Of a DNA stretch of 64,000 nt, positions 5,662 to 60,409 are shown piece by piece. The notes beneath the pieces are model-generated. The model saw only the letters and a program-made list of their open reading frames with translations. It was not told where the DNA came from and made no database searches. Positions within the stretch are counted from its first letter, which is position 1. Each line of letters starts with the position of its first letter. Origin of the DNA: Hemileia vastatrix (lineage: Eukaryota > Basidiomycota > Pucciniomycetes > Pucciniales > Zaghouaniaceae); the NCBI GenBank assembly GCA_030280995.1, contig JASXTE010000005.1, positions 22,933,001 to 22,997,000 of the forward strand. The letters run 5' to 3'. Made by a program: the position numbers and the translations under genes.

Positions 5662-6208
5662 GTGAAAATAGGAGGATGAACTCTGTTCTTCGGGCAAAGA
5701 ACAGAGTTCACTTCCATTCACTTATATTTCTTTTTTCTCAACTCATCTCTCCAGGTAAGTCATTTTATTCTTTTTAAACAGATAGTGAAAATAGGAGGAT
5801 GAACTCTGTTCTTCGGGCGAAGAACAGAGTTCACTTCCATTCACTTATATTTCTTTTTTCTCAACTCATCTCTCCAGGTAAGTCATTTTATTCTTTTTAA
5901 ACAGAGTGTGAAAATAGGAGGATGAACTCTGTTCTTCGGGCGAAGAACAGAGTTCACTTCCATTCACTTATATTTCTTTTTTCTCAACTCATCTCTCCAG
6001 GTAAGTCATTTTATTCTTTTTAAACAGAGTGTGAAAATAGGAGGATGAACTCTGTTCTTCGGGCGAAGAACAGAGTTCACTTCCATTCACTTATATTTCT
6101 TTTTTCTAAACTCATCTCTCCAGGTAAGTCATTTTATTCTTTTTAAACAGAGTGTGAAAATAGGAGGATGAACTCTGTTCTTCGGGCGAAGAACAGAGTT
6201 CACTTCCA
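5662..6208 (+). repeat. 123-bp tandem array, each unit with a hairpin
   Basis: Units begin at 5662, 5785, 5908, 6031 and 6154, an exact 123-bp period; the fifth stops near 6208. Each unit holds a near-perfect hairpin (GAACTCTGTTCTTCG, 2-3 nt loop, complement), then a pyrimidine-rich stretch ending CTCTCCAGGTAAGT, then an A/T stretch. Units differ at only a few positions, so the amplification is recent. 6209-6418 is AT-rich sequence I cannot assign; homology to C resumes near 6419. Confidence 0.9.
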
Positions 6209-6540
6209 TAAAATATTAGCTGAAACATAGTTTTCAATTCTGTAAAAACAGTTGTAAGTAATAGAAAAAGTCACTGATTTTTTTTATATGTAATCTGAAA
6301 TTTTTTAATAAAATTATTGTATTTAAGAATTGCAATATTGTCAATCAATCTTTATTGATCAACTTAATTTAATAAAGTATTATTTAAATAAGTTGCTTCA
6401 AAAAATACTTTGCATTGAACCTAGTTTCTAGACTTGATCTGCATTTTGGCTTAAGGAATTGTCATTTCTTTAAAAGTAGTATACTTGACATATCTTATTT
6501 ATATATTAATTAATTTATGTAATTATATTGTATTTTGATG

Positions 6541-6730
6541 ACTTTCACCCTTTACTTCAATAAAATGCAGGGGAGGGTATTGCCAATTTTTTAAATCTGA
6601 CATGTGAAATTGATGACTTAGAAAAATTTGGTGGTACCCACCCCTTGTTTCAATAAAATGCAGGGGAGGGCATTGCCAATTTTTTAAATCTGACATGTGA
6701 AATTGATGACTTAGAAAAATTTAGATAAGC
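6541..6730. repeat. Minisatellite between gene ends (A)
   Basis: Two copies of a unit of about 94 bp containing TGCAGGGGAGGG and GGTGGTACCCACCCCTTG, the same repeat found at 13693-13900 in B and 37200-37345 in C, in the gap downstream of the SANT gene. Confidence 0.75.
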
Positions 6731-6876
6731 AAACTTATTGACTAGAAAGTAAAGATAGAAAATTTTTATTATACATTCAAATTTTTGTCAAAAATAACGT
6801 ACTATATTCTTTTCCTTTTATAAGTCAGAATATAAGAAAATATTACCAAAATTAAATTAACTAGAAAAACAATTTA

Positions 6877-8190
6877 TCAATTGAAAAGGTCAAGTAATTT
6901 TTTAATGTCCTCATAAGATTGGCCATTTTTAACACATTCCATAATGAAATCTTTTTTTTTAAAACTCTCTTGTTTTTCCAATTCACAAGTAGCCATTTCT
7001 CTTTGAAATTGACGGTCATTTACTCTTTCCATCTGCTCTACCTCAAATTTTTTTTCTTCCAAATCTAAGGCTTGCTGATCTTTCCTTAGCATATGATCAA
7101 ACTTCATCTTCTCAAAGTCAAGGGCATTATTTGCAATAGTTGATTTCGCTGAGAAAATTAAATTGAAATAAATAAATAAATGAGTTAATGATTAAGATAT
7201 ATAGTAAACAAAACTTACTTATATCTTTTTTTTCAAAATAATCCTCAAGGGAGCCAAATGAGCTTGTTGAAGTATTACCACGTTTTAATAGATGGTTCAA
7301 GTTCATTGAAGTTGAGGCTCGACGCTTTAGTTTGGAGTTTGAACAAGAGGCTTCAGGAAGTTCTTCTAAAGCAGCTTCTAAAGAGGTATTCACATTTCCA
7401 GAATCGAGATTATTTAATGGAGTTTGAGTTTGAGTAGGAGGAGACTAGAAAGAAAGAGAAATTCAGAGAAGAATTGAAGAAAAAACAAAAAGTAAACATA
7501 CATTTAAATTTTGGGCCTCTGAGGATTCAGATCTTCTGCGATATAATTGTTCTGCTTGATAGTTGGGATCATCTTCAGCTGAACTATGGTTAGAAGGTGG
7601 AGGGGATTGATCTTCTTCAAGTAAAGGTGTGTTGGGAGGATTATAGGAAGGTTTGGATCCAGAGGGTATATGCTTAGTAGTATCGTGTAGAAACCAAGGG
7701 TTTACATCAACTCGGGTGCCAAAAAGATTATCCATTTCCTCATAGAAAGACACATGACATTGAGCTTTTCGGAAACAGTAGTAATTCCAATCTCCAAATC
7801 ATCATCGTCAATACCAAAGCCAGTTTCATTTACAGCATGATGAGTCTTTTTATATTTTGAATGGTAACTCTTAAATCTCTCCTTCATTTGTTTAGGATTG
7901 ATATCAATTCTCCCCCTTGTTTTCTTCCTTACTTCATTGGCCATCAACAAGTAGCCATTAACCTTTGAAGAAGGTGGACGTCCAATACGAGTGGACTTTT
8001 CACATCCAAAACATGCTTCAAAATTTGATTTTATTTTAAGGAAGTTGATTATGATGAGATAATCATCCTTTTTAAGCTGACCTGAACCTGCCTTTGATTT
8101 TTCAGGTGTAGGGCTTGCTTTACGAGGAGACTTTTGTGACGAAGCAGATTTTTGAGTTACCTTTTGAGATTTGGAATGTCTGGGAGGCAT
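6877..8190 (-). pseudogene. SANT/NAM-like transposon protein (A)
   Basis: Three-exon gene on the minus strand: start MPPRHSKSQK at 8190, stop at 6877. Exon 1 carries a lysine/serine-rich N-terminus, a Myb/SANT-like region (LKKDDYLIIINFLKIKSN to about residue 130) and the motif GFGIDDDDLE. Intron 1 ends CTTTCTAG and intron 2 lies near 7150-7215. Exon 3 encodes a charged coiled coil (DFEKMKFDHMLRKDQQ onward, ending IKKLLDLFN) like the NAM-associated C-terminal domain. A 1-nt deletion near 7752 (GTGTCTTTC where B has GTGTCCTTTC) shifts the frame within exon 1. In Harbinger systems such a protein binds DNA and helps bring the transposase to the nucleus and the TIRs. It is otherwise well preserved. 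Confidence 0.85.
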
Positions 8191-8566
8191 TATGAAACTG
8201 GCACATAACAAGAAAAAAGATTAAAAAGTAGAAGAAATAAGTAAAAAAGAATGTAAACATGCCTGGTCAAAATATTGAAAATGTCAGGAAGGGGTGTGTG
8301 CCGAGGATTGATGGGTAGGTAGCGAGGAAGGTCAGTGTGTCACATGTGACAGGGATGGGGTAAGAAAGGAAGGGATGTTTTGTGGCCAAAATGTGGTTGT
8401 GAAAAAAAACGGGAAAAAAGTGCTGATTTGAGGTCATAACTGACACCCTTTTTTGAAATAAGTGACTTTTTTGCAAAATTTAAGTGCTGATTTGTAAGTG
8501 CTGATTTGGTTTGAAATCCGCACTTAATTTAAGTGCGGATTTGCCAGAACTGACACCCCCTAATAT

Positions 8567-8700
8567 TTGGAGAGGGAGAAGGTTGAGATTCAAAGAGATA
8601 ATGATGAAAAATTTAAAAATAATCAATTTCAATTGGAAAACACCCAAATTCAGTTAAAAGCCAATGAATTAAAAATGATTTATGTCAAAAATATTTTTTT
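8567..8700 (+). pseudogene. Coiled-coil relic in element D
   Basis: A short open stretch rich in E, K, Q and N (EREKVEIQRDNDEKFKNNQF onward) resembles the coiled-coil C-terminus of the SANT/NAM-like proteins. It begins immediately right of nested element A and is followed by a decayed copy of the 94-bp minisatellite (around 8710-8830). I take it as a remnant of the SANT gene of D or of a second such gene. Confidence 0.45.
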
Positions 8701-9319
8701 AGAAATACCCTTCCCTAATTTTTACCATAAAGGGAGGTGGGAATCACCATTTTTTTTCTAAGTCAGAAAAAAATTTATGAAAAAAAAATGGAAATACCCT
8801 CCCCTGTGTATTATTGAAGTAGGGGCATAGATTGTCAATATTTATGCTCATTGCATAAATTAGCATGTAAAAAAGTCTTATAAGATAATTTACAAGCCTA
8901 TGTTAATGACAATTCAAGTAAAAATGTGTGTGGAAATTGTCTATGACCAAAGTCAATGAAATCAAACATAAATTTATACATGAACCTCATGAGAAAAACA
9001 AATTTCCTCATGATTACTGTTATAAAACACACAGCCAATGGCTCATTAATTTAGGTAATTAGAGTATCATATATGACTTGTAAAAATTTAATTGGTGAAA
9101 TAAAAATAAAATTTTACAACCTATATTACACCCCATACTTTTTTTTTCTATTTAATGTTTTTTGTTTTACCTCACCTTTTTCTCATACCTTATCAATCCT
9201 ATTAATCAGCTCCCTATTGATTTGAAAAGAACAGCCAAAGTAAGTAAATTCTTCAAAGGATTTTTAAAGATTTTTTATATCTGTTTAATTTACCTTCTTT
9301 TTTTACCTTGTTTATTCTG

Positions 9320-9420
9320 TGGATTAATTTTTGACTGATTTGAAATATACATCCAAACTGTGTGAACTCTTGACAAGATTCCAAGCCATGTGGAGCTTTG
9401 TCATTCAGTGATTAACTTGA
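9320..9420 (-). pseudogene. TET/JBP-like oxygenase, C-terminal tail relic (D)
   Basis: On the minus strand this encodes a tail of the form LESCQEFTQFGCIFQISQKL, matching the segment that follows the last catalytic histidine in C and, past a stop, in B. A trace of N-H-x-x-T lies just upstream. The rest of the gene is not recognisable. It shows that the D subfamily carried the oxygenase too. Confidence 0.6.
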
Positions 9421-9544
9421 GAAACTTCTTTTAGGTAAAGAATAGATGCCTATTAAAATAAAATGAGTGACATGATTTTAAGAATGAAGCATATATTATC
9501 AGACATACCAAGAGAATAGCTTTTAAAAAATCCTGGTCTAAACA

Positions 9545-10165
9545 TGAAATAAATTAAATGAAATTTAGAAAAAAGGCTCAAATTTAAAGGTCAATATCTC
9601 AGCAACCACTGAACTTAATTCAAATCCATTTATGGAAAATGAAAGATAGGCTTCAGAAGAATCTTCAGCTAAAATAACGTAAGATTTTAATAAACCTAAC
9701 ACTAATTTTGACTCTGATTTTCAAAATTGCACAAAAATTTAAAAATTGATGATGAAATTTTTAACAAGATGGAGATATAAGCCTAGATAATAATCAGATA
9801 AGATTTTAGAAGCCTGGTTCTCTAATTATGAAATATAAAAACATAAAATAAATTAAGTAACATTCGGAAAAAAATGCTCCACTTTTAAGGTCAAAATCTT
9901 AGCAACCACTGATCCAAATTCAAACCTGTTTGTGTGAAATGAAAGATAGGCTTCAGGAGAATCTTAAGTTAAAGGACATGTGATTTAAAAAACCTAAACA
10001 TAATTTATTACATAAAAATATGAAATAAATAAAATTAAAATGGGAAAAAAAGGCTCAAATATAAAGGTCAATATCTCAAAAAACACTGGACTAAATTCAA
10101 ATCTTTTTATGGAAAATGAAAGGTAGCCTTCAGAAGAATCTTCAGTAAAAATAAAATTAGATTCA
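9545..10165. repeat. Three diverged repeats of about 150 bp (D)
   Basis: Segments at about 9545-9695, 9840-9985 and 10012-10165 share AAGGTCAATATCTCAGCAAC-like and GAAAGATAGGCTTCAG-like blocks in the same order and orientation. No coding meaning is visible. Confidence 0.7.
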
Positions 10166-10689
10166 AATAAACATAACCCTAATTCCAAGTCTGATTTTCA
10201 AAATTTCACAAAAACTTGAAAAGTGGTAATGGAGATGAGAACAAGAAGAGTTTAAAAAGTCCACTTTTATCCAGATAAGAGTCATGCATATATTTAAGTA
10301 TGAAATTTTTATAGAAGGAAAGAGATATCATTTAGTTATAAAGAAAGGAGATGAACCTTACCTTTATTGAAAAGTAGTAAAAATAGAGCAAGAGAGAATG
10401 ATGTTGGATTTTGGGCTTAATTGAATATTGAGTAAGTGAAATATATAAAGAATGTGCAACATATGTGTTTTAATTACATGGAGCCAAAAAAAAAGTGAAA
10501 TAGGGGAAAGGAGGATAATGACCATGCCAAGGAGGAATGATGAGTAGGGTGATGGAGCTAAAAAAGAAAGAAAAGAGAGAGAGAAAAAATGTTAATTTTA
10601 CAATAAAAATCAAAAATGACCACTTACAAAAAGAATTTAGATAAAAAAGAAAGTAAAACAGAAAAAAAACAAAAAAGATTTAATTAGCA

Positions 10690-11135
10690 ATCAAAAAATT
10701 AATAAAATGAGTTACCTGGAGAGATGAGACGAGAAAATAAATGAAACAAAATTGTTTGAGGGATGTTGGAGGAGAAGAGGAAAAGGATATGATGGATGAA
10801 CTAAAAAAAGAAACAGTGAAAAATTATTCAATCACAGAAAATATGTGATTTCATGTTGAGCTGGTAAATGAAAACAAATGAGACATCCAAAAAAGAGACA
10901 TTCAGTTTAAATTCAAAATAAAAATGAATATGCAAAATAAAAACACCAAACCAAGTGAATAAAGCACAGAATTTAAACATTTGGAGAGTATGAAAAAAAA
11001 TAAAAGGGTTGTGTCTCAAAATGTTGGAGGGTGGTTTGCATAATGACAGAGCGTATGCTGGTGGAAAGAATGTTTTATGATTCAAGGGAGGGGAGAGCTG
11101 GTTCAGGTATGGGATCCTCTTCTTCATAAAAATCA
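10690..11135. other. Decayed promoter-like interior of D
   Basis: Near 10710 the minus strand reads CTCATCTCTCCAGGTAAC, matching the CAG/GTAAGT motif duplicated in C (34330, 34673) and amplified in A. Otherwise this is AT-rich decayed sequence; the ORFs here are not supported. Confidence 0.45.
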
Positions 11136-11220
11136 TTGAAAAGACATATAATCTAAAATGTCTTCCAACCCAGAGTCACAGTCAGAGTTGGTGTCTAAAA
11201 TTATAGTTATAGCACTCATA
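11135..11220 (-). pseudogene. Transposase N-terminus relic (D)
   Basis: The minus strand from about 11219 encodes ILDTNSDCDSGLEDI, resembling the acidic N-terminal stretch LLDSDSDSDLEEDF of the A and C transposases, at the expected distance from the right TIR and in the expected orientation. Only the first tens of residues are recognisable. Confidence 0.45.
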
Positions 11221-12062
11221 GCTGTGTGAAGTTGCTTCCTAGTAGAGAGGTGCTTCATTATTGTTGGTAGAAAAGGTTGTTAGTAGAAGGCTTAGGTGAT
11301 GAGAAGGAAGTGGGAATTTTCCACCAAATGAGCAGGTGGGGTGTGTAGATAGAAAAAATGTTATTTTTTTGCCATAAAGATTAAGTATCATAGAGTGAAG
11401 AGATGCATAAAGATGAGAAATAATGTTATGTGTTTGCCACCAAAATTGAGTATCATAGAGTGATGAGATAAATAAGGATGGCATCCACAATTATTTGTCA
11501 TTTTACTTACTTACAAATCAATTATGGATGTGATGAGTTTGAGATCAGGAATTAGGAACAGAAATAGTGGTATAAGAGGCAGGATAATGCATTATTGTGG
11601 ATTTTTTATCCACTAGCCCTGGGGCCAGTGGATAAGAATCTTCTGCAATTAATATTGTCTGATCCCGGGAAAAAAAATTCCTGATCCCTAATTTCAGATT
11701 CCTGAACATTGATACCCCCTATTAGGGGGTGTCAGTTCTGGAAAGTCCGCACTTAACTTAAGTGCAGATTTCAAACCAAATCAGCACCTAAATTTTTCAA
11801 AAATGGGTGTCAGTTCTGACCTCAAATCAGCACTTTTTTTGTGATTTTTTTTTCAAAACCACATGTTGGCCAAATCATCCCTTTCTTTCATATACCATCC
11901 CTATAACATGTGATACACTGACCTTCCTCACTACCTACCCATCAATCCTCAGCACACACCCCTTCCTGAAATTTTCAACATTTTGACCAGGCATGTTTAC
12001 ATTCTTTTTTACTTATTTCTTCTACCTCTTATTCTTTTTTCTTGTTATGTGCCAGTTTCACA

Positions 12063-13397
12063 ATGCCTCCCAGACATTCCAAATCTCAAAAGCTAACTCA
12101 AAAATCTGCTTCATCACAAAAGTCTCCTTGTAAAGCAAGCCCTACACCTGAAAAATCAAAGTCAGGTTCAGGTCATCTTAAAAAGGATGATTATCTCATC
12201 ATAATAAACTTCCTTAAAATAAAATCAAACTTTGAAGCATGTTTTGGATGTGAAAAGTCCACTCGTATTGGACATCCACCTTCTTCAAAGGTTAATGGCC
12301 ACTTATTGATGGCCAATGAAGTAAGGAAGAAAACAAGTAGGAGAATCAATATCAATCCTACACAAATGAAGGTGAGATTTAAGAGTTCCCAATCAAAATA
12401 TAAAAAGGCTCATCATGCTGCAAATGGAACTGGCTTTGGTATTGACGATGATGATTTAGAGATTAGAATTACTACTGTTTCCAAAAAGCTCAATGCCATG
12501 TGTCCTTTCTATGAGGAAATGGATAATATTTTTGGCTCCTGAGTTGATGTAAACCCTTGGTTTCTACACAATTCTACTAAGGATATACCCTCTGGATCTA
12601 AACCTTCCTATAATCCTCCCGGCACACTTTACTTGAAGGAGATCAATCCCCTCCACCTTCTAACCATAGTTCAGCTGAAGATGATCCCGACTATCAAGCA
12701 GAACAATTATATCGCAGCAGATATGAATCCTCAGAGGCCCAAAATTTAAATGTATTTTTACTTTTTGTTTTCTCTTCAATTCTTATCTGAATTTCTCTTT
12801 CATTCTAGTCTCCTCCTACTCAAACTCAAACTCCATTAAATAATCTCGATTCTGGAAATGTGAATCCCACTTTAGAAGCTGCTTTAGATGAACTTCCTGA
12901 AGCCTCTTGCTCAAGCTCCAAACTAAAGCGTCAAGCCTCAACTTCAATGAAATTTAACCATCTATTAAAACGTGGTAATACTTCAACAAGCTCATTTGGC
13001 TCCCTTGATTATTATTTTGAAAAAAAAGATATAAGTAAGATTTGTTTACTATATATCTTAATCATTAACTCATTTATTTATTTATTTCAATTTAATTTTC
13101 TCAGCAAAATCAACTATTTCAAAAAATGCCCTTGACTTTGAGAAGATGAAGTTTGATCATATGCTAAGGAAAGATCAGCAAGCCTTAGATTTGGAAGAAA
13201 AAAAATTTGAGGCAGAGCAGATGGAAAGAGTAAATGACAGTCAATTTCAAAGAGAAGACCGTCAATTTCAAAGAGAAATGGCTGCATGTGAATTGGAAAA
13301 ACAAGAGAGTTTTTAAAAAAAAGATTTCATTATGGAATGTGTAAAAAATGGCCAATCTTATGAGGACATTAAAAAATTACTTGACCTTTTCAATTGA
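12063..13397 (+). pseudogene. SANT/NAM-like transposon protein (B)
   Basis: Best-preserved reading of exon 1 of this family: MPPRHSKSQK at 12063, Myb/SANT-like region, then NAMCPFYEEMDNIFGS without the frameshift seen in A and C. A TGA at 12540 replaces the CGA (Arg) codon of A, and a 1-nt deletion near 12622 shifts the frame again. Intron 1 is 12752-12808 (57 nt) and intron 2 is 13035-13104 (70 nt), both GT...AG; exon 3 runs 13105-13397. A further stop (AAA to TAA) interrupts exon 3 after KQESF. The role is as for the A copy: DNA-binding partner of the transposase. Not functional as it stands. Confidence 0.85.
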
Positions 13398-13692
13398 TAA
13401 ATTATTTTTCTAGTTAATTTAATTTTGTTTGATTTATTTTTGGTAATATTTCTTATATGCTGACTTATAAAAGGTCTTGAATATAGTACGTTATTTTTGA
13501 CAAATTTTTGAAAATATCATACAATATTTCTATCTTTACATTCAAGTCAATAAGTTTGCTTATACTTTTATTTTGACCAAAATTTGAAAATATAATAAAA
13601 ATTTTCTATCTTTACTTTCAAGTCAATAAGTTTGCTTATCTAAATACTTTTAAGTCAATAAAATTCAATATCTCTTTTGAAATTTTGACAAT

Positions 13693-13900
13693 ACCTCCCC
13701 TTGAATTTTATTGAAACAAGGGGTGGGTACCACCAAATTTTTCTAAGTCATCAATTTCACATGTAAAATTTAAAAAATTGGCAATACCCTCCCCTGCATT
13801 TTATTGAAACAAGGGGTGGGTACCACCAAATTTTTCTAAGTCATCAATTTCACATGTCAGATTTAAAAAATTGGCAATACCCTCCCCTGCATTTTATTGA
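13693..13900 (+). repeat. 94-bp minisatellite between convergent genes (B)
   Basis: Two full copies and part of a third (CCTCCCCT at about 13693, 13787 and 13881), each with GGGGTGGGTACCACC. It lies between the ends of the converging SANT and oxygenase genes, where copy number differs among A, B and C. Confidence 0.85.
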
Positions 13901-14353
13901 AGTAAAGGGTGAAAGTCATCAAAATTTAATATAATTACATAAATTAATTAATATATAAATAAGATATGTCAATTTACTACTTTTTAAAGTAATGATAATT
14001 GCTCATGCCAAAATGCAGATCAAGTCTATAAACTAGGTTTGAGACTTTCCACAGGTATAGGCTAGAGGAACCCCATGAAACAAATTAATGTTATCATGAT
14101 TACCTTTTATACAACACATGGTCATTGGCCCATTACTTTAATTTCATAAATTGAAATATAATATATATTAATTAAAAATTTATGGAAGAATATTAAATAT
14201 TTGGTGACTCTACGAATCCCCATACTTTTTAGATCTACCTAAAGAATTTTTAAATTTATTACTTTTTTCTTATTTTTTTAACTTTTATATTTGTTGGATT
14301 AACTTTTGACTGATCTGAAAAGAGCAACCGAAATGCGTGAAGTCTTGACAAGA

Positions 14354-15169
14354 TTACAAACCTGGAGGAGCCTTTGTGGTTTGGTGATTATCATAAGAAG
14401 AATTCCAAACTGTTTTGATGATTCCATTTCCTAATCCAAAATTGATTATACATCTATGATCTGGGAAATATAATCCATGTCCTTTAATTTTTACAGGTGA
14501 CGGAATAGGTTGTCCAGTGATAGGATTAATATATGTGAAAATTCCATAAGTGAGGTAATTGGCATCATTTGAGTCAGTGTGAATTCGGTTATGAAATCCA
14601 GAATGAGTGATTATAAAATTTGAAAACATTAGATAATCACTGCTAATATCTTCCCATTCAAAGTCGCACCAATTTGGTATTCCAAGTCTCGTAGCAACTT
14701 CATGATTTGTTTCAAAAGCTTTATTACAGAGTTTTTTAAGTCGAAGAGCAAGAAATGAATTAAATGAAGGTAAAGTATTCCATTTTTGAAAATCATTATC
14801 TAATTCAGCTTTAGATAAAGATCTGAGTAAAGAATATATGACTATTTGAATTAAATTCAGTAAAATGATATTAAAAAATCCAGAAATATTTTTAAAGATA
14901 CCAAGAGAAAAACCTTTATCAAATCCTGGTCTCCATCCAAAACCAATCATGATTCCACCCAACAAATTCTTATTCCTTAAAGTTAAGCAAACCAAAGCCA
15001 TTTGATAGAGTGTTATGATGAGATCACAGAGTTGATTAAATGATTCATCTTTTAAACCATTAAAAGAATGGTTTTCGTAAATAAATTGAGGTTTGAAAGT
15101 ATTATTAATAACAGCTTTAACTTCATCACCTCCAGTTTCAGTTAAATAATGTATATTCTCAGGTAACAT
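14354..15169 (-). CDS. TET/JBP-like 2OG-Fe(II) oxygenase (element B)
   Basis: 271-residue open frame starting MLPENIHYL. The C-terminal third has the double-stranded beta-helix signature of the fungal Tet-like dioxygenases: ITHSGFHNRIHTDSND with the metal-binding HxD (His197, Asp199), then YLTYGIFTYINPITGQP, FPDHRCIINFGLGNG and VWNSSYDNHQTT with the distal metal-binding His near 262. TET/JBP enzymes hydroxylate thymine or 5-methylcytosine in DNA using Fe(II) and 2-oxoglutarate. A TAA ends the frame at PPGL, but homology continues to 14285 (FTHFGCSFQISQKL), and C has a Glu codon there, so about 23 residues are lost. Family members often have Arg in this tail; here it is His. A Ser/Thr-rich segment conserved with C starts at 15395, upstream in another frame, and may be a first exon. 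Substrate and activity are inferred. Confidence 0.75.
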   Translation of the reverse strand: MLPENIHYLTETGGDEVKAVINNTFKPQFIYENHSFNGLKDESFNQLCDLIITLYQMALVCLTLRNKNLLGGIMIGFGWRPGFDKGFSLGIFKNISGFFNIILLNLIQIVIYSLLRSLSKAELDNDFQKWNTLPSFNSFLALRLKKLCNKAFETNHEVATRLGIPNWCDFEWEDISSDYLMFSNFIITHSGFHNRIHTDSNDANYLTYGIFTYINPITGQPIPSPVKIKGHGLYFPDHRCIINFGLGNGIIKTVWNSSYDNHQTTKAPPGL

Positions 15170-15715
15170 TTTCAGATATTGTTAGATTTTTCAACTTTAG
15201 TTTTATAGTACTTGATTTTTGAAATATGGCCAAATATTTGATCCAAGTGATTTTTTTTAAATTTCTTTTATTTGGATACTGTTCATTTTTTGTCAATGTT
15301 TTGGATGATGATTGAAAAGAAGTTGAATTTGAAGAGGATCATGAAGTTAAAGAAGATGAGAGTGAGGTAAGTGGTGAATCTGAAGTTAAAGACATGTATT
15401 TTTCTACTTTTGGGTGTTGTTACTTTTCAAACACCCAAAATTATACATTAAAAAAAACTCACTTAATTTAAATTAAACAAATAAAAATCCTCAAAAGACT
15501 AATAAGAATTTTTTTGTTTCACTTGAAATTGATGAATATTTTTCTCTAAAATTAAAAATAACAAAAAAAAAATTCAAAAAACTGTGAAATTTTTTTATCA
15601 CTTCCACATTCCCCTAAATTCCCTGCTCTAAACCCCTCTCCCACCCCCCCAAAACCCTTGTACAAACCCCCCCTCCAACCTATTCACATCCCCTTTTAAA
15701 CCCCTCCAAACCCCC

Positions 15716-32421: not shown

Positions 32422-32729
32422 AGGGGGTGTCAGTTCTGGAAAATTTGCACTTACAAACCTGCACTTAAATTTGACCAAATCCACACTTATTTAAGTGTGG
32501 ATTTCCAAAACACACTAGCCCCAATACTGGTGGATTTCAAAATGAAATAAGTCACTTATTTCACTCAAATCCGCACTATCTCAACCAAAAGTTCTGATTT
32601 CACCATCATGTCCCATTTCATTGATTTGTCAGCATCATCCCAATCATACACAGCACTCTGCAGCATAACACTTCATAACTCAAAACATTGTACATCATTT
32701 ACATTTTCATATCATATCATATAAGAGTC

Positions 32730-33914
32730 ATGCCTTCCTCACTTTCAAATCGTGATAAATTACATAAAGCAATGACTTTCATGGCTCTTGAACTGCTCTT
32801 GGACTCTGATCTAGAGGAAGATTTTGTCTTTTTATCAAAAATGGCCACAAAACATTACCTTCTTCCCAGAAAGCCCCAAGTACTTAATACCCCCAAGTAC
32901 ACCATCCAAACACTCCTAAACTTATCTGAAACCAGTTTTAAACAGCTATTCAAGACTTTTTCAGGAGTATTTCCTTAAATTGCTTGAGCTTATTCAGGAT
33001 CAGCCCATGCTTCACAATAATTCTCAAAAAACAACAATGTGATCCTTCGATTCAATTGGCCATCACACAATGTTTTTTGGGTTCCAATAGTAATGGAGCT
33101 GCCTTGAAATGTTTGGAAAAAGGTATTTAATTTAGGGTATGGTTCTGTTAACACTTATACAAAACAATGCATCACTTCTATCAACTCTTTGGAATCTCAA
33201 CTTCTCACCTTGCCAACAAAAGAAGAGCAACTTGAATCATCTCAGGTTATGCAAGCAGAAGGCTTCCAAGGATTTATTGGTTTTGTTGACGGAACTACTA
33301 TTCTTTTGAGCCAGAAACCTGCTCAAGGTGGAAACAATTACTTTGACCATAAAAAGAGGTAGATTATTTTCAACTCTTTTCATTCTCTATTAAACTAACA
33401 CAAACAACTGTATCTTCTTTATATATATTCAATTTCTGCTCAGCTTTTATGTGACGTTAACAAAAAATTTATATCATTCTTTGCTGGCTATCCTGGCTCA
33501 TGTCATGACTCCTACATCTTCCAAAGAGTGCAAATTTCAAATGAACCTGAAAAATTCTTTGATGAAGATCAGTATCTTCTTGCAGATTCTTCTTATGTAA
33601 ATGGAAAGTATGTACTTCCTGCTTTTTGGGGAGCAGCTTCAGAAGACAGTCAAAATTTCAAGTTCAACTATCATTTGGCAAAGTCAAGAGTCCGTATTGA
33701 GCATTCTATTGGAATCTTGAAAGGCCGTTTTTCTAGTTTAAGGGAATTAAGAAGTCCTATTAGAAATCAATCTGAAATGGAGGTGGTGATCAACTGGATT
33801 CTGTGTTGCACTATACTTCATAACCTACTTGCTGACCTCAAAGATCAATGGTTAGAGCTGTATGAAGATGAACAAGTTGATTCACCTCCAACTATATCCA
33901 ACACTTGGAGGTGA
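32730..33914 (+). pseudogene. PIF/Harbinger-type DDE transposase (C)
   Basis: Nuclease that would cut and paste the element. The N-terminus (MPSSLSNRDKLHKAMTFMAL) is followed by the HTH-like region with frameshifts near 32955, 33035 and 33120. The catalytic domain shows GFIGFVDGTT (first Asp), AGYPGSCHDSYIF, YLLADSSYVNGKY (second Asp) and VRIEHSIGILKGRF (Glu): the DDE triad with the Harbinger-type GCHD and LKGRF motifs. An intron-like gap at 33359-33424 separates NNYFDHKKR from YSISAQLLCDVNKKF; the donor is GT but no AG precedes the second exon. The C-terminus runs into hairpin sequence at 33871. Frameshifts make it inactive. Confidence 0.87.
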
Positions 33915-33987
33915 ATCAACTTGTTACTCTTGATACAGCTCTTTGATTGAGAAATAGAACTATATCCAACACTTCTATTTCTCAACC
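33871..33987. repeat. Two successive hairpins with identical loops
   Basis: First hairpin: 21-bp perfect arms 33871-33891 and 33905-33925. Second: arms 33947-33959 and 33973-33985. Both enclose the same 13-nt loop CTATATCCAACAC. They overlap the end of the transposase frame, whose last residues are translated from the first hairpin. Confidence 0.85.
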
Positions 33988-34070
33988 AACTAGTATAAGG
34001 GCAAAAATTCTTCCAATAACACTTCAACATTTTTCAACACAATTTTAATTTTTTTTTCATACTCTTCAAA

Positions 34071-34740
34071 TGATCAATTCGCATGTTTTATTCACTGAGA
34101 ATGGTAATTTTTTTTTCCATATTTAATTTTTTTTGAATTTGCTGTTAAAGTATTATTTTTTTATCTCTCTGTGTTTTCTTTCATCAACTCAACATGAAAT
34201 CAAATATTTTCTGAAAATTCATATTTTTTCAGTCGCTCTCTTTTTTTTCTTCACTCATATCCGTTTCCTCCTCTCTTCTTACATCACTCAAACAATTTCA
34301 ATTCTATTTCTTTTTTCTCAACTCATCTCTCCAGGTAAGTCATTTTTTCTTTTTTACTTAATTTTTTGCTAATTTTTTTTTGTAAGTGCCTTTTTTTAAA
34401 ATTATTGGTAAAATGATCAGTTTGCATGTTTTATTCACTGAGAACAGTAATTTTTTTTGCATATTTATTTTGTTTTTTAATTTGTTGTTAAAGTCTAATT
34501 TTTTATCTCTCTGTGTTTTCTTTCATCAACTCAAGATGAAATCGCATATTTTCTGAAAATTCATATTTTTTCAGCTTCTCTCTTTTTTTTCTTCACTCAT
34601 ATCTGTTTCCTCCTCTCTTCTTACATCACTCAAAAAAATTCAATTCTATTTCTTTTCTCTCAACTCATCTCTCCAGGTAAGTCTTTTTTTCTTTTTTACT
34701 TAATTTTTTGCTAATTTTTTTTTTTGGTTTTTTTTTGTAA
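34071..34740 (+). repeat. Tandem duplication of about 341 bp, promoter-like
   Basis: A segment beginning TGATCAATTCGCATGTTTTA at 34072 is repeated from 34413. Each copy ends in a long pyrimidine tract and CTCTCCAGGTAAGT (34330-34340 and 34671-34682). It lies upstream of the oxygenase gene and may hold its promoter and leader, or a splice signal; it encodes nothing recognisable. Confidence 0.65.
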
Positions 34741-34789
34741 GTGCTTTTTTTAAATTTATAGGTAAAATTAACCTTTTTTTTTCTCTCTC

Positions 34790-35210
34790 CCTTCCCTCTT
34801 TTCTCTCATTCATCCTATTCTTATTCCCCCCTTTTCCTGGGCTTTTTCCCACCTTTACCCTCTCCTTGGAATGGATATATCCCCCTTTTCCGCCCTTTGG
34901 CTGCCTTATTCCCCCCTCCTTGGCTCACTCTAACCTCCCTTTTCTCCTTCTTTGGTCTCATCTCTCCCTTTCTCCCCCTTGTTGGTGTCCTCATTTCCTC
35001 CCCTCATTCATTCCTCTCCAACCCCCCTTCAAATCACCCAAATCCCCCCTCCAAATAACCCCCAATCCCCCCCTCCTATCCCCCTCAGAACCCCCCTATC
35101 ACCCCCTCCTTTCCCCCTCAGAACCCCACCAAACCCCCCCCTTTCCCCCTCAGAACCCCACCAAACCCCCCCCCTCTGCAATCCCCCCCTCAAAACCCCC
35201 CCACCCCCCC
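34790..35210 (+). repeat. Pyrimidine-rich tract of element C
   Basis: Strand-asymmetric C/T-rich DNA with runs of up to ten C. Proline-rich ORFs here are artefacts of composition. Confidence 0.85.
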
Positions 35211-35336
35211 CCCCTCATTCCTCCTTAACAATTTGCTAACGAATCGTTTAGCAAATCATTAAGTTAATGAATGATTACAATTAACCGTTCAGTAACTTAA
35301 AGATTCGTTAGTGAATTGTTAAGGAGGAATGAGGGG
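35211..35336. repeat. Large internal palindrome of element C
   Basis: Arms of 35 nt (35211-35245 and 35302-35336, two mismatches) around a 56-nt centre with further short inverted repeats such as TTAACGAATC-like steps. The arms continue into the pyrimidine tract on the left and the purine tract (35337-35530) on the right, so the potential hairpin is much longer. It is the centre of the element, between the transposase and oxygenase genes. Confidence 0.8.
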
Positions 35337-35725
35337 GAGGGGGTAGGGGGGTTGGGGGTTCTGATGGGGATTGGAGGGGGGGTTGGGGGGGTTCTGAGGG
35401 GGATTGGGGGGGATTGGGGGGTTATGAGGGGGATTGTGGGGGATGTGGGGGATGTGGGGAGGTTTGAGGGGGGGTTTGTACAAGGTTTTAGGGGAGGTGG
35501 GAGGGGGAATTGAGGGGAATGGGGAAGGGATAAAAAAAATTTCACAGTTTTTTAAAATATTTTGTTTCTGAATTTTAAAGAAAAATATTCATCAAGCTCA
35601 AGTGAAATAAAAAAATTCTTATTCATCTTTTGAGGAATTTTTTTTAAATTTAAATTAAGTGAGTTTTTTTTTAATGTATAATTTTGGGTATTTGAAAAGT
35701 AACAAATTTTTATGTAGAAAAATAT

Positions 35726-36821
35726 ATGTCTTTAACTTCAGATTCATCACTTACCTCACTCTCTTCTTTTTTAACTTCATTATCATCTTCAAATTCAACT
35801 TCTTTTCAATCATCATCTAAAACATGGACAAAAAATGAAGAGTATCAAAATAAAAGATATTTTAAAACAATTCACTTGGATCAAATATTTGGCCATATTT
35901 CAAAAATCAAGTACTATAAAACTAAAGTTGAAAAAAGAACAATTTTCCAAAAATGTTACCTGAAAATATACATCATTTAACTGAAATTGGAGGTGATGAA
36001 GTTAAAGCTGTTATTAATAATAATTTCAAACCTCAATTTATTTACGAAAACCATTTTTTTAATGGTTTAAAAGATGAATCATTTAATCAACTCTGAAATC
36101 TCATCATAACACTCTATCAAATGGCTTTGGCTTGCTTACCTTTAAGGAATAAGAATTTGTTGGGTGGTATTATGATTGGTATTGGATGGAGACCTGAATT
36201 TGATAAAGGAGTTTCTCTTGGTATGTTTAAAAAAATTTCTGGATGTTTTAATATCATATTACTGAATTAAATTATATAGGCATATATTCTTTACTCAGAT
36301 CTTTATCTAAAGATGAATTAGATAATGATTTTCAAAAATGGAATACATTACCTTCATTTAATTCATTTCTTGCTCTTTGACTTAAAAAACTCTTCAATAA
36401 AGCTTTTGAAAAAAATCATGAACTTGCTACGAGACTTAGAATACCAAATTGGTGTGACTCTGAATGGGAAGATATTAGCAGTGATTATCTAATGTTTTCA
36501 AATGTTATAATCACTCATTCTGGATTTCATAACCGAATTCACACCAACTCAAATGATGCCAATTACCTTACTTATGGAATTTTTTCATATATTAATCCTA
36601 TCACTGGACAACCTATTCCGTCACCTGCTAAAATTAAAGGACATGGATTATATTTCCCAGATCATAGATGTATAATTGATTTTGTATTAGGAAATGGAAT
36701 CATCGAAACAGTTTGGAATTCTTCTTAAAATAATCACCAAACCACAGAGGCTCCTCCAGGTTTGGAATCTTGTCAAGACTTCACGCATTATGGTTGCTCT
36801 TTCCAGATCAGTCAAAATTAA
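35726..36821 (+). pseudogene. TET/JBP-like 2OG-Fe(II) oxygenase (C)
   Basis: Homologous along its whole length to the B gene. A Ser/Thr-rich N-terminal segment opens at 35726 (MSLTSDSSLTSLSSFLTS). The main domain begins MLPENIHHL at 35953 in another frame, so either an intron or a frameshift lies between. Stops: TGA near 36095, a frame break near 36270, a TGA replacing Arg near 36378 and a TAA after VWNSS near 36728. The C-terminal piece keeps FPDHRCIIDF and NHQTT, but the metal motif reads HTN instead of HTD, so one iron ligand is lost. The tail PPGLESCQDFTHYGCSFQIS ends at 36821 without the stop seen in B. Confidence 0.8.
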
Positions 36822-37199
36822 TTCAACCAAAAAACAAGTTAAAAAAAGAAGAAAAAGGTAATAAATTTAAAAATTCTTTAGGTAGATCTAAAAATTATGG
36901 GGATTTGTAGAATCACCAAATATTTAATATTATTCCATAAATGTTTAATAAATAAATCTGATATGTCACTTTACCAAACTAAAGTAATGAGCCAATGACC
37001 TTGGGTTGTATAAAAGGTAATCATGACAACATTAATTTGCTTCATGGGGTTCCTCTAGTCTATACCTATGGAAATTCTCAAAATTAGTTTCTAGACTTGA
37101 TCTGCATTTTGGCATGAGGAATTGTCATTACTTTAAAAGTAGTAGATTTGACATATCTTATTTATATATTAATTAATTTATGTAATTATATTAAATTTT

Positions 37200-37345
37200 G
37201 GAGACTTTCACCCTTTACTTCAATAAAATGCAGGGGAGGGTATTGCCAAATTTTTAAATCTGACATGTGAAATTGATGACTCAGAAAAATTTGGTGGTAC
37301 CCACCACCCCTTGTTTCAATAAAATTCAAGGGGAGGTATTTCCAA
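37200..37345. repeat. Minisatellite between convergent genes (C)
   Basis: About one and a half copies of the 94-bp unit with GGTGGTACCCACC, between the oxygenase and SANT gene ends. Confidence 0.75.
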
Positions 37346-37628
37346 ATTTTCAAAAGTGATATAGAGCTTTAATGAATTAGCAGTATTTAGATAAGAAAAC
37401 TTATTGACTTGAAAGTAAAGATAGAAAAATGGTATTATATTTTCAAATTTTTGTCAAAAAAAAGTATAAGCAAACTTATTGACTTGAATGTAAAGATAGA
37501 AAAATTGTATGATATTTTTGAAAATCCATCAAAAAAAAGTAGTATATTCAAGACCTTTTATAAGTCAGAATATAAGAAATTATTACCAAAAAGAAATCAA
37601 ACATAATTAATTTAACTAGAAAAACAAT

Positions 37629-38937
37629 TTATTGATTGAAAAGGTCAAGCAATTTTTTAATGTCCTCATAAGATTGGCTATTTTTTACACATTCGATAAT
37701 GAAATCTTTTTTCAAAACTTTCTTGTTTTTCCAATTCACAAGTAGCCATTTCTCTTTGAAATTGATGGTCATTTACTCTTTCCATCTTCTCTGCCTCAAA
37801 TTTTTTTTCTTCCAAATATAAGGCTTGCTGATCTTTCCTTAGCATATGATCAAACTTCATCTTCTCAAAGTCAAGGGCATTTTTTACAATATTTTATTTT
37901 TCTGAGAAAATTAAATAGAAATAAATAAATAAATAATTTAATGAATAAGATATATAGTAAAAAAATCTTACTTATATCCTTTTTTTCAAAATAATCCTCA
38001 AGGGAGCCAATTGAGCTTGTTGAAGTATTACCACGTTTTAAAATATGGTTCAATTTCATTGAAGTTGAGGGCCGTTTCTTTAATTTGGAGTTTTAAAAGG
38101 AGGCTTCAGGAAGTTAATCTAAAGCAGCTTCTAAAGCAGGATTCACATTTCCAGAATCGAGATTATTTAATGGAGTTTGGGTTTGAGTAGGAGGAGACTA
38201 GAAAGAAAGAGAAATTTAGAGAAGAATTGAAGAAAAAAGAAAAAGTTAACATACATTTAAATTTTGGGGCTCTGAGGATTTAAATCTGCTGCAATTTAAT
38301 TGTTCTTCTTGATAGTTGGGATAATCTTCTGCTGAACTATGGTTAGAAGGTGGAGGGGATTGATTTTCTTCAAGTAAAGGTGTGTCAGGAGGATTATTGG
38401 AAGGTTTGGATCCAGAGGGTATATCCTTAGTATTATCATGTAGAAACCAAGGGTTTACATCAACTCGGGAGCCAAAAAGATTATTCATTTCCTCATAGAA
38501 AGACACATGACATTGAGCTTTTTGTAAACAGTAGTAATTCTAATCTCCAAATCATCATTTTCAATACCAAAGCTAATTTCATTTGCAGCATGATGAGCCT
38601 TTTTATATTTTGATTGATAACTCTTAAATCTCTCCTTCATTTGTTTGGGATTGACATCAATTCTCCCCCTTGTTTTCTTCCTTACTTCATTGTCCATCAA
38701 TAAGTAGCCATTAACCTTTGAAGAAGGTGGATGTCCAATACAAGTGGAATTTTCACATCCAAAACACACATCATAATTTGATTTTATTTTCAGGAAGTTG
38801 ATTATAATGAGATAATCATCCTATTCTAGCTGACTTGACTTTGATTTTTCAGGTGTGGGGCTTGCTTTATGAGGAGACTTTTGTGACAAAGAAGATTTTT
38901 GAGTTACATTTTGAGATTTGGAATGTCTGGGAGGCAT
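37629..38937 (-). pseudogene. SANT/NAM-like transposon protein (C)
   Basis: Minus-strand three-exon gene with the same layout as A and B: start at 38937, Myb/SANT-like region (EVRKKTRGRIDVNPKQMKER), acidic and proline-rich linker, intron, exon 2, intron, coiled-coil exon 3 ending at 37629. It carries the same 1-nt deletion as A after LNVMC (near 38510) and several further stops and shifts, including one near 38095 in exon 2 and a frameshift before the last helix. Confidence 0.82.
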
Positions 38938-39587
38938 TATAAAACTGGTACATAACGAGAAAAGAGATTAAGAGGCAGAAGAAATAAGTGAAAAAGAATG
39001 TAAACATGCCTGGTAAAAATTTTGTAATAAAATGTTGAAAATGCTAGAAAGGGGTGTGCTGAGGATTGATGGGTAGGGAGCAAGGAAGGTCAGTGTGTCA
39101 CATATGACAGGGATGGGGTAAGAAATGAAAGGATGTTGTGGCCAACATGTGATTTTGAAAAAAAATGGGAAAAAAGTGCTGATTTGAGGTCATAACTGAC
39201 ACCCTTTTTTTAAATAAGTGACTTTTTTGCAAAATTTAAGTGCTGATTTGGTTTGAAATCCACACTTAAGTTAAGTGCGTATTTTACAGAACTGACACCC
39301 CCTAATATATATATAGATAAAGAATTTGGAAAACAAAATGTTTGAAACATCTAAAAGTCTTCTGATAAAGCTGAAATTAATTCTCTTCCTCCTCATTCTC
39401 CCTTTTTTTTAAAAACAAAATACAATGGAGCTACATTTATATACACTTTAAATAAAGATTTCATTAAAAGAAAAAAAAATTTAATATAAGGCTAACTATT
39501 CAATCTAATAAAAAACGAAAAGAAGAAAAAAAAATTGTAATCAAGAGGTGATAACCTCATATTATTGTATTAAATGTTACATACATT

Positions 39588-57576: not shown

Positions 57577-57890
57577 ATTTACACTAGACATGCTTCCCAT
57601 TTTCTTTATTTATTATTTCAACCTCTTAATTTCTTTTCTTAAAACATACCAATTTTATAATGCATATCAGAAAATTCAAAAAAAAATGCTTCACCACAAA
57701 AAGCTTCTCATAAAGCAAGCCCCTCAGAAGAAAAAGCAAAGTGTGGACAGCTGAAAAAGTAAGATTATCTCATCATGATCAACTTCCTAAAAATCAAATT
57801 ATATTATGATTCATTTTTTAGGGGTGAGGAGTCCACTTTTATTGGATTTCTATCTTTTTCTAAGTTTAATTGCTTCTTAAACATGAAAAA
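57577..57890 (+). pseudogene. SANT/NAM-like relic of F
   Basis: Resumes exactly where B and C would continue: the sequence ACTAGACATGCTTCC matches the promoter of B, then decayed coding sequence from about 57665 with traces of KASSHKASP, KKxDYLIMINFLKIK and a weak GEESTFIG. Stops and shifts abound. Same gene as in A-C, much older. Confidence 0.65.
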
Positions 57891-59034
57891 AAGCTTTTGA
57901 ATATAATTAATGAGAATTTTGAAGGTATGATATCAGGATTAGGATGGAAGGTATTAGAGATTAGTGAATTAGTTATTGATGATTAACAAAAAGATATAAG
58001 TATGATTTTGAAAGAATTTCAAGAAGATGTCAAAGAGAAATATAGAAGGAATGATTCATACTTGTAGTAATAGTAGATTAAAACCAAATAAATTTCTCAA
58101 TAATTAAATACTAAATTTATGCTAAATTTTCGAATGTGCTATTGTGCTTGGATGGATCTTTACCCTTAATTCACACAGAATACAGTTAATTATTACCTTC
58201 ATTCAGGAATTTTTCCTTAAGAGGCCCTCTTACGTAACATAGTGTCACCAGAAAACCTACACACAAGGTTGAGGGTGTTCCTGAGTAAGTGAGATTGGGG
58301 ATTTATTTTGAAACTACTTTGACATACAGAGGAGTACCTTAAAGATGTGGTTTAAAGATATGTTGAAGGAAATTATCCTAATTTGAGAGATTTTTAAGGA
58401 GAATATTAATATAAATTTAAAGGTGATACTCATATTTGAAGAAATCTTAAAAAGGGTTGTAAACTTAATAATCAAGAGAAATGATTCAATAATTTAGGAT
58501 TGATTTAAAATAATTATTAAGAAAAGGAAGGAAACAATAATAACCCAACATACTACTATAAGTTTGATACTATCAAAATGATATTATAATTTAATTCTAG
58601 GGAATTTCAAATCAAAACCAGCACCATCTATATAGACAAGTCCACCTTGAATTGGCCCTTTTAATAAAAATACTTGCCATACCATAGACCCCTTATTATT
58701 TCCCCCTTTTCCTACTTAAAAACCCATTAACAGCCCTCAGACACACAATAACCTGCATTGGGAATATCATGTTGACCATACTACTAATCATACATCAATT
58801 TGTTTAAATTAAAAAGCATAAGCATGTAATTGAAATTAATAAACAATTTCAGATTTAGCATTTAGACAAGCAAAGTCAAATAAGTGATTCTGGATTGAGA
58901 ACACAAAGGAAATACAGTTGTTAAGCAAATTTTTCTTCTATTCTTTTCTTATGGATTTAGTTGAGACAATTGTGTCCTAGATTATGGACTTAGTTATCTG
59001 CTTTTGCTTTGAATGTCACACTTTGTGCGACACA
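57891..59034. other. Interior of relic F, unassigned
   Basis: AT-rich with no gene that I can support. The region where the oxygenase gene would be expected shows no recognisable HxD motif. A GC-richer stretch near 58620-58780 could be another small insertion. Confidence 0.4.
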
Positions 59035-59840
59035 AAGACTAGCAAATAAAACTTTTCAAGATTCAAATAGAATGTTCAATACAGAAACTAGACTTTTCTA
59101 AATGATATTTGAGCTTGGAATTCCATCTGTCTTCTGAAGCTGGTCACTGAAAATCTGGAAGTACATACTTTCCATTCACATAAACTGAATCTTACAGAAG
59201 ATAATGATCTTCATCAAAAAATTTCTCAGGTTCTTTTGAAATCTTCATTCTTTGGAAGATGTGGGAATCATGAAATGATTCAGGATAGCCATCAAATAAT
59301 GATATGAATTTTTTGTTGATGTCACTTTAAGCTTAATGAAAATTAAATACATATATAGATGATATAGTAGCTTGTGTTAGTATCAAAAAGAATGAATAGA
59401 TTAAAAAAATATGCTACCTCTTTTTTCTGTCAAAGTAATGGTTTCTACCTTCAGCAGAGTTCTGTCTAAACAAAATAGTTTTAACATAAAAAAAACCAGC
59501 ACATCCTAGTAAAACCTCTTCTTGAATAACATGAGATTATTCAAGTCATTCTTCTTTTTTTGGTCAAGTGAGAAGTTTGAATTCCATGGAAAGGATAGCA
59601 GTGATGCATTATTTTGTAATGCTATTAATTGAGCCATACTCTAAAGAAAAGACGGTTTTCAAATGTTTCAAAGCTGCTCCATTAATATTGGACCCCAATT
59701 GACATACTTCAATGGTCAATTAAATTGAAGGATCACATTGTTTTTTTTGTGAATTATTTTAAAACTTGGGGTGATCCTTAATAAGCTCAACCTATTTAGT
59801 TAAGATATCATTTGAAGTCCTGAATAGCTGTCTATAACTT
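59035..59840 (-). pseudogene. Harbinger-type transposase relic of F
   Basis: On the minus strand this aligns base for base, with many changes, to 32925-33740 of C: the HTH region, the intron-like gap (with the same donor AAAAGAG/GTA), the segment corresponding to AGYPxSxHDS, the ADSxYVNGKYVL region and the IEHSIxILK region. It shows that F had the transposase in the same relative position. The N-terminus and TIR are cut off by an LTR-alpha at about 59840. Confidence 0.7.
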
Positions 59841-60409
59841 TCAGTCTGGATATTCCTAGTAATGAGAAAAAACAACTTATAAATTTTTTTAAACAGATTT
59901 AGTACACATGGGAACAATAAATAAAGGTATACAAGTTTTATACATAAGTGAAATCAATTATTAAACACAATATATGCCATTATAATACCTTATATACACT
60001 TATATATCCACCTTTTATAACTCTTATGTACTTAATGTTAAGTTCAAATATTTCATGTTAATCTTAACAACCTTAAACATAAGGCTAAATAATATTTAAT
60101 TAGACTTTAAGCTGTTGTTTTCATTGTTTTATGTAAAAAACAAGAAATGCGCTTTAGATCACTTAAAAGTTGAATATATGCACTATAAATTTAATAATAC
60201 TAAAAATTCTCCTTTACAGATAAATTTTTCTTAATTAGGAATATTGATTTGGCTACTCAAATTCATAAAAAGAACACTTTTTAAATTTGGTCTTTTTTAT
60301 TCCAGAAATAGCTTCTGTGTACTGGCAACATACTGCCTGCATTTTTCCTATGTGAATAGCTTCATTTTTAGTAAATTTAGGTTTTTCACACTATAATTAC
60401 CCCCACATT
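59840..60409 (+). repeat. LTR-alpha relic, cut by Gypsy-4
   Basis: Decayed start of LTR-alpha (TCAGTCTGGATATTCCTAG) that follows 29879-30440 in order, up to the insertion point of Gypsy-4. Confidence 0.75.

What the first reader, a model, noticed from the sequence alone, without database searches (positions are those of the whole stretch)
32422..39303. A Harbinger-type transposon carrying a TET/JBP-like DNA dioxygenase as a third gene
Seen: one TIR pair with AAT duplications encloses a DDE transposase, a SANT/NAM-like gene and an HxD-type oxygenase; B and D show the same order, so the oxygenase is a resident gene and not a chance insertion. Known: PIF/Harbinger elements normally have two genes, and fungal TET/JBP genes have been linked to KDZ-type DNA transposons (Iyer and colleagues, 2014). 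Inference: the enzyme could oxidise 5-methylcytosine on the element or its target and so counter silencing. A Harbinger link would be a separate capture from the KDZ one.
Basis: partly seen in the sequence, partly recalled or inferred. Interest (0 to 1): 0.87.

Follow-up and report, generated by a model that had tools for sequence, protein, structure and literature searches.

The report
Rust transposon carrying TET-like oxygenase gene
A decayed jumping gene, probably from a rust fungus, carries besides its own transposase a gene for a TET-like enzyme that may strip silencing marks off DNA; such elements were described in rusts in 2025, so this is a further example of a known kind.

Summary
The element at 32422-39303 is real: 17-nt perfect terminal inverted repeats, AAT on both sides, a Harbinger-type DDE transposase (PF13359), a Tet-like 2OG-Fe(II) oxygenase (PF20515) and a third gene on the other strand. 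In this copy the oxygenase is dead (HxN for HxD, in-frame stops). The copy at 11724-15712 has an open HxD oxygenase but no transposase. The copy at 4349-8561 lacks the oxygenase. The remnant near 57.6-59.9 kb shows none. A divergent element (2437-11720) holds an oxygenase remnant at the corresponding place, so one old capture is likely. The three oxygenase loci found in the window all lie in such elements. The idea is in print: Kojima 2025 (PMC12730594) reports TET-positive Harbinger elements ('PHISTA') in Puccinia and Austropuccinia psidii and proposes escape from methylation silencing. Possible additions: the target duplication reads better as 3-bp AAT (Pangu/IS5-like ANT) than as PHISTA's TA; two families seem to share one capture; CpG decay is visible. 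Copies beyond the window could not be counted (genome search did not complete).

The parts
32422..39303 (+). Harbinger/PHIS-type element (here called C), TIR to TIR, 6882 bp
   Evidence: inverted repeats and AAT flanks
32422..32453 (+). left terminal inverted repeat; preceded by AAT (32419-32421)
39272..39303 (-). right terminal inverted repeat; followed by AAT (39304-39306); a second GGTGTCAGTT starts 101 nt inside
32730..33911 (+). transposase gene, broken: N-terminal piece 32730-32975, DDE pieces 33108-33359 and 33399-33911; D, D, E codons at 33288, 33585, 33699 with 37 residues between the second D and E
   Evidence: PF13359 E 7.2e-23 on 33399-33911; motifs and spacing; frame loss after 32975 and a stop at 33360
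34068..34723 (+). 342-bp tandem duplication (1.9 units) between transposase and oxygenase, with CTCTCCAGGTAAGT twice (splice-donor-like; inference)
   Evidence: sequence
35009..35485 (.). C-rich/G-rich fold-back region
   Evidence: inverted repeats of 83 and 58 nt
35944..36764 (+). Tet-like 2OG-Fe(II) oxygenase, broken: HTN at 36540-36548 in place of HxD, stops at 36094 and 36378
   Evidence: PF20515 E 5.9e-19 on 36381-36725
37635..38967 (-). third gene (sub-threshold Myb/SANT-like stretch in its N-terminal half, charged C-terminal half), broken by stops
11724..15712 (-). copy B: right TIR at 11724, third gene, oxygenase; transposase side missing; the sequence at 15713-16514 is read as a Gypsy-type LTR (inference: TG...CA ends beside an integrase ORF; no second LTR found)
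14357..15181 (-). open oxygenase ORF of copy B, 275 codons, HTD at 14573-14581 and distal His in PDHRC
   Evidence: PF20515 E 4.2e-33, profile positions 8-211 of 211
4349..8561 (+). copy N: 36-nt perfect TIRs, AAT flanks, transposase N-terminus and third gene, no oxygenase match and no DDE-core match
2437..11720 (-). divergent element A (TIR AGGGGGTATCAATGTT, ATT flanks) with N nested in it; third gene within 2704-4077, oxygenase remnant within 9357-9557 lacking the catalytic core, possible transposase N-terminus 11160-11249 (E 0.06 only)
57577..59854 (-). remnant D: third-gene piece and transposase pieces, no oxygenase match, no TIR found

Best explanation
A PIF/Harbinger-superfamily (PHIS) DNA transposon, probably of a rust fungus, that carries a captured TET/JBP-type oxygenase as a third resident gene. 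Shown: one TIR pair with 3-bp flanking repeats encloses DDE transposase, PF20515 oxygenase and a third gene; a divergent relative keeps an oxygenase remnant at the corresponding place; the open oxygenase frame in copy B has the HxD...H iron ligands. Inferred: when the element was active the transposase moved it by its TIRs, the third protein acted as a DNA-binding accessory, and the oxygenase oxidised 5-methylcytosine on the element so that its genes stayed readable and fewer CpGs were lost to deamination. The copies seen here have since decayed, partly through CpG-to-TpG change.
For: TIRs and flanks. PF13359 and PF20515 hits. B and C are 90.8% identical over 3801 aligned sites. A against C on one strand: 12 matching rows; five fall on C's tandem duplication, and counted as one block with six further rows they make 7 blocks in one order, 1 row (E 2e-4) being out of order; four control segments, both strands, gave 0, 0, 1 (27 nt) and 0 rows. 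Of the 7, one lies in the oxygenase's first half (window 36190-36294) and one starts at its last codons and runs downstream (36722-36880). The oxygenase query gave five rows at E up to 1 in three loci (B, C, A), all inside elements; a sixth kind of evidence is not claimed, and of the five one (E 0.73, opposite strand, inside B) is dropped as chance, leaving four rows; A's row has E 0.005 and is backed by the DNA match E 6e-11. Oxygenase coding sites differ between B and C at 41 of 721, other aligned sites (third gene's N-terminal part set apart: 44 of 453) at 264 of 2627, Fisher p 0.0002. dN/dS 0.48 over 206 codons. Transitions at 8 of 63 CpG site-lineages against 65 of 2034 other C/G, p 0.001; the stop at 36378 is TGA where B has CGA. 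TET-positive Harbinger elements in Pucciniales are in print.
Against: The three-gene order is complete in only one element of the window, and its three genes are all broken. Copy N has no oxygenase, and it keeps the most CpG (observed/expected 0.39, against 0.24 in B, 0.26 in A with N inside, 0.16 in C), the opposite of what protection by an own oxygenase would give, although N also looks youngest by its TIRs. The permutation test for selection is not significant (24 nonsynonymous codons, 27.1 expected, p 0.13). Both AlphaFold models were useless (mean pLDDT 39.4 and 33.8), so the fold rests on the profile match. No homologue outside the window was found in the collections tried, which are prokaryotic, viral or metagenomic. 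Catalysis on 5mC and the anti-silencing role are untested here and, per Kojima 2025, not experimentally validated.
Confidence: 0.85

Rival explanations
1. The oxygenase is a partner of transposition itself (for example oxidising end or target cytosines to steer the transposase) rather than a lifter of silencing.
For: The gene is kept, at least as a remnant, in two families. Otherwise inference.
Against: No CpG lies in the first 17 nt of the TIR. Copy N may have moved without an own oxygenase, though help in trans or loss after insertion is possible.
Confidence: 0.1
2. The oxygenase is a passenger: a gene caught by the element and carried along without use.
For: Broken in C, absent in N, core lost in A; permutation test for purifying selection not significant.
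Against: Lower divergence of oxygenase coding sites; probably present before A and C split; open in B; Kojima 2025 states that the reading frames of transposon-borne TET genes are mostly not disrupted.
Confidence: 0.12
3. C is a chance composite: an oxygenase-bearing element of another superfamily inserted in a Harbinger element.
For: TET genes of the rust type sit in seven transposon lineages (abstract).
Against: Among the 25 longest of 184 inverted-repeat pairs listed, those that enclose the oxygenase besides the TIR pair are AT-rich or subterminal matches of 71-78% (the other 159 were not seen); the oxygenase sits at the corresponding place in B and A.
Confidence: 0.04

Closest known systems
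PHISTA, TET-positive Harbinger elements of Puccinia and Austropuccinia psidii (Kojima 2025, PMC12730594)
   Same: PHIS-type transposase, TET/JBP dioxygenase and a third protein without a recognised Myb/SANT domain, in rust fungi; TA adjoins the G-run on both sides here too
   Different: Kojima gives TA duplications; here the flanks agree over three bases (AAT) in 3 of 3 complete elements. Whether this family is one of his fifteen could not be checked (supplement not available here)
Pangu group of PHIS (Han 2015, PMC4482050, passages)
   Same: TSD ANT; TIRs usually starting AG or GG; second ORF in which the Results found no known motif (the Discussion of the same paper counts Pangu among groups with Myb/SANT)
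   Different: No TET gene in the passages seen; transposase clade not tested here
PIF/Harbinger proper
   Same: DDE_Tnp_4-type transposase, short TIR starting A or G, a second DNA-binding-like protein (weak)
   Different: TSD TWA expected, AAT found; an extra oxygenase gene; no HTH Pfam hit in the N-terminal transposase pieces
KDZ elements with TET/JBP (Iyer 2014, seen only as cited by Kojima 2025)
   Same: DNA transposon with a TET/JBP gene in basidiomycetes
   Different: Other transposase superfamily; 7-8 bp TSDs in the examples Kojima gives

Membership tests
PHIS / Harbinger superfamily | DDE transposase of the DDE_Tnp_4 type with all three catalytic residues | tested here: met
   PF13359 E 7.2e-23; D, D, E codons present in C although the gene is broken
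PIF/Harbinger proper | TWA target duplication | tested here: not met
   AAT (ATT in the other orientation) in 3 of 3 complete elements
PHISTA | TA target duplication | tested here: inconclusive
   TA adjoins the G-run on both sides in 3 of 3, but the flanks agree over 3 bp; a TA-only model without wider target preference gives that with about 0.033 per element. No empty site found
PHISTA | third protein without Myb/SANT domain | tested here: met
   Myb_DNA-bind_4 at 16.9-18.8 bits, below the cut-off of 27, in C, N and B; no hit in the one piece of A scanned
PHISTA | transposase groups with PHISTA in a tree | not testable with these tools
   no reference sequences held
Pangu | ANT target duplication and TIR starting AG or GG | tested here: met
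   AAT/ATT flanks, TIR starts AG; definition from passages of PMC4482050
Pangu | transposase groups with Pangu in a tree | not testable with these tools
   no reference sequences held
TET/JBP-type oxygenase (PF20515) | profile match over the whole domain | tested here: met
   copy B E 4.2e-33, positions 8-211 of 211
TET/JBP-type oxygenase (PF20515) | HxD...H iron ligands | tested here: met
   met in copy B (HTD, His of PDHRC); not met in copy C (HTN)
TET/JBP-type oxygenase (PF20515) | oxidation of 5-methylcytosine | not testable with these tools
   needs an enzyme assay

The most novel reading that the evidence does not exclude
These elements belong to the ANT-duplicating, IS5/Pangu-like branch of PHIS rather than to PHISTA, so that the oxygenase was taken up by yet another transposon branch; or else the TA duplication reported for PHISTA is, at least in this family, the visible core of a 3-bp ANT duplication next to an A...T terminus, which would redraw the boundary between the two groups.
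Probability: 0.3. Interest if true: 0.4.

Novelty: new member of a known kind. Interest (0 to 1): 0.33.

Why it matters
Transposons that carry a DNA-demethylating enzyme would be a direct weapon in the contest between mobile DNA and cytosine methylation. The window adds a case with an open and a dead oxygenase copy, a deletion derivative without it and CpG decay in one stretch, which makes the anti-silencing idea testable on one family. It does not add a new principle, since the association is published.

Tried and rejected
Structure prediction of the third protein (copy N's ORF with three relatives) and of the copy B oxygenase (with three pieces of C) gave mean pLDDT 39.4 and 33.8, so no fold search was run. 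PDB sequence searches with three queries gave 2, 0 and 2 chains, none better than E 0.49. The protein search with the copy B oxygenase found 441 word-sharing candidates, none with E up to 0.001. The TIR pattern gave 0 viral contigs; the oxygenase matched patterns in 10 viral and 7 genome stretches, none confirmed as a relative; the transposase piece matched none. A KDZ assignment was rejected for this element because the transposase matches PF13359. The TIR-like sites at 16520 and 61168 were set aside as probable retroelement boundaries; a second LTR for the first was sought and only partial inverted matches of 66-70% (one of 31 nt at 90%) near 23.3-24.0 kb were found. A TCG-context test was not attempted, with only 8 CpG transitions. 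An empty site was sought in the window and not found. A TIR for remnant D was not found. Host: low GC (21-40% per 2-kb block), CpG observed/expected 0.25 and Gypsy-like ORFs fit Austropuccinia psidii as described in PMC8063080 (passages), but the species was not established.

Print: searches (listings, cut at 8-20 rows where more papers matched; judged by title and start of abstract). Of what was listed, Kojima 2025 treats transposon-borne TET genes in rusts; a 2026 review (PMC13297926, passages) cites it in a sentence on Basidiomycota and Pezizomycetes. PMC12774611 was seen in passages. Iyer 2014 is not held and was seen only as cited.
Full report
What was checked. The element at 32422-39303 begins and ends with AGGGGGTGTCAGTTCTG; the arms are identical over 17 nt and at 27 of the first 30. 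AAT stands directly before the left and after the right end. The motif AGGGGGTGTC is found 9 times in the window with up to one mismatch, against a mean of 1.55 in 100 shuffles, the largest being 5. Seven of the nine are ends of four elements (C, B, N, A). The two at 16511-16520 and 61159-61168 leave the TIR sequence after 12 bases and lie beside Gypsy-like ORFs (Pfam only for the first).

Genes. The transposase piece 33399-33911 matches DDE_Tnp_4 (PF13359, E 7.2e-23); D, D and E are present with 37 residues between the last two. The gene is broken: the frame is lost after 32975, and the frame of the catalytic pieces is interrupted from 33360, perhaps at a decayed intron (inference). The oxygenase matches PF20515, Tet-like 2OG-Fe(II) oxygenase (E 5.9e-19 on one piece of C; E 4.2e-33 over positions 8-211 of 211 in B). 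In C the iron-binding HxD reads HTN, and there are stops at 36094 and 36378; in B it reads HTD, with the distal histidine present, in an open frame of 275 codons. The third gene runs on the minus strand. Myb_DNA-bind_4 matches it only below the cut-off (16.9, 17.6 and 18.8 bits against 27); in C a FUR profile scores as weakly (16.7 bits), and the one piece of element A that was scanned gave no family.

The other copies. B (11724-15712) has the right TIR, the third gene and the oxygenase, 90.8% identical to C over 3801 sites, and ends in the G-rich stretch next to what I read as a Gypsy-type LTR (inference; no second LTR found). No match to the DDE pieces at E up to 1 was found between there and C. 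N (4349-8561) has 36-nt perfect TIRs and AAT flanks, the transposase N-terminus and the third gene, but no match to DDE core or oxygenase. A (2437-11720), into which N has inserted, has its own TIR (AGGGGGTATCAATGTT) with ATT flanks, a third gene 49% identical over 106 residues, and a remnant of the oxygenase without its catalytic core (protein E 0.005; DNA E 6e-11). A and C, compared on one strand with N left out, give 12 rows: five over C's tandem duplication, six more in the same order, one out of order. The shared stretches are, in window coordinates of C, 34019-34861 upstream of the oxygenase, 36190-36294 in its first half, 36722-36880 from its last codons onward, and further ones towards the third gene; 34862-36189 is not shared. 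Four control segments gave one 27-nt row in all. I read this as one capture before the two families parted. A transposase trace in A (E 0.06) is too weak to count. The remnant at 57577-59854 has transposase and third-gene pieces, no oxygenase match and no TIR. With the oxygenase of B as query, five rows at E up to 1 fall in B, C and A; one of them (E 0.73, opposite strand within B) was dropped as chance.

Selection and decay. Between B and C the oxygenase coding sites differ at 41 of 721, the third gene's N-terminal part at 44 of 453, and the remaining aligned sites at 264 of 2627 (first against last: Fisher p 0.0002). dN/dS over 206 oxygenase codons is 0.48 (three segments, chosen to leave out stops and intron), but a permutation of the same 37 changes gives p 0.13, so purifying selection is suggested, not shown. 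For the third gene dN/dS is 0.59-0.95 in four comparisons. In the three-copy alignment (2093 columns, gapped ones left out) C/G transitions fall on 8 of 63 CpG site-lineages and on 65 of 2034 others (p 0.001); by copy 6 of 21 in C, 2 of 21 in B, 0 of 21 in N. The stop at 36378 is TGA in C and CGA in B. HTN in C (ACCAAC) and HTD in B (ACTGAC) could both descend from ACCGAC by loss of one CpG on either strand; this is an inference from two sequences. Against a protective role stands that N, without oxygenase, keeps the highest CpG ratio (0.39; C 0.16, B region 0.24); N also has the most alike TIRs and is probably youngest.

Target duplication. In 3 of 3 complete elements the flanks agree over three bases, AAT when all are turned as C is. 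The element ends in A and T, so an ANT duplication will always show TA on both sides of the G-run. Under a TA-only model the three-base agreement would arise by chance with about 0.033 per element, 4e-5 for three, if there is no wider target preference. ANT is the duplication of the Pangu group and of bacterial IS5 (PMC4482050, passages); TA is given for PHISTA (PMC12730594, section 3.1). With three sites and no empty site I leave this open.

What is known. Kojima 2025 (PMC12730594; abstract, sections 3.1 and 3.4, the first part of section 4 and figure legends read) reports fifteen TET-positive Harbinger families in six rust species including Austropuccinia psidii, names the lineage PHISTA, finds a third protein without Myb/SANT domain, finds TET genes passing between transposon superfamilies, and proposes escape from methylation-based silencing, stating that the function is not experimentally validated. 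The finding is therefore a further member, or one of the members, of a described kind. The supplement with the family list could not be looked at.

How it most likely works. Transposition by a TIR-binding DDE transposase follows from the family (established knowledge). That the third protein helps in DNA binding is inference by analogy with PIF/Harbinger. That the oxygenase oxidises 5mC on the element and so counters silencing and CpG decay is inference, supported by the family match, by CpG decay in these copies and by the reported hypermethylation of transposons in A. psidii (PMC12774611, passages), if that is the host. I hold the anatomy at about 0.9 and the anti-silencing role at about 0.6.

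Noticed in passing
window 5653-6209: Copy N holds a 123-bp tandem array (4.5 units, 98% matches) whose unit includes the splice-donor-like CTCTCCAGGTAAGT found twice in C at 34068-34723.
   Followed up: partly
window 39194-39203, 8438-8447, 11806-11815: A second GGTGTCAGTT starts 83-115 nt inside the right end in 3 of 3 right ends (B, C, N) and is absent from the first 200 nt of 2 of 2 left ends (C, N).
   Followed up: partly
window 39585-39828: A decayed right-end fragment of the same family lies in inverted orientation about 280 bp beyond element C.
   Followed up: no
window 35009-35485: Long C-rich and G-rich arms form a fold-back inside C; N matches part of it.
   Followed up: no
window 45477-45579 and 55122-55224: 11-bp tandem repeats (CGGAGTCCGTA-like) occur in two similar regions on either side of a Gypsy-like coding region, perhaps its LTRs.
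   Followed up: no
window 16552-18000: Gypsy-type integrase ORF ending in a chromodomain (PF00385).
   Followed up: no
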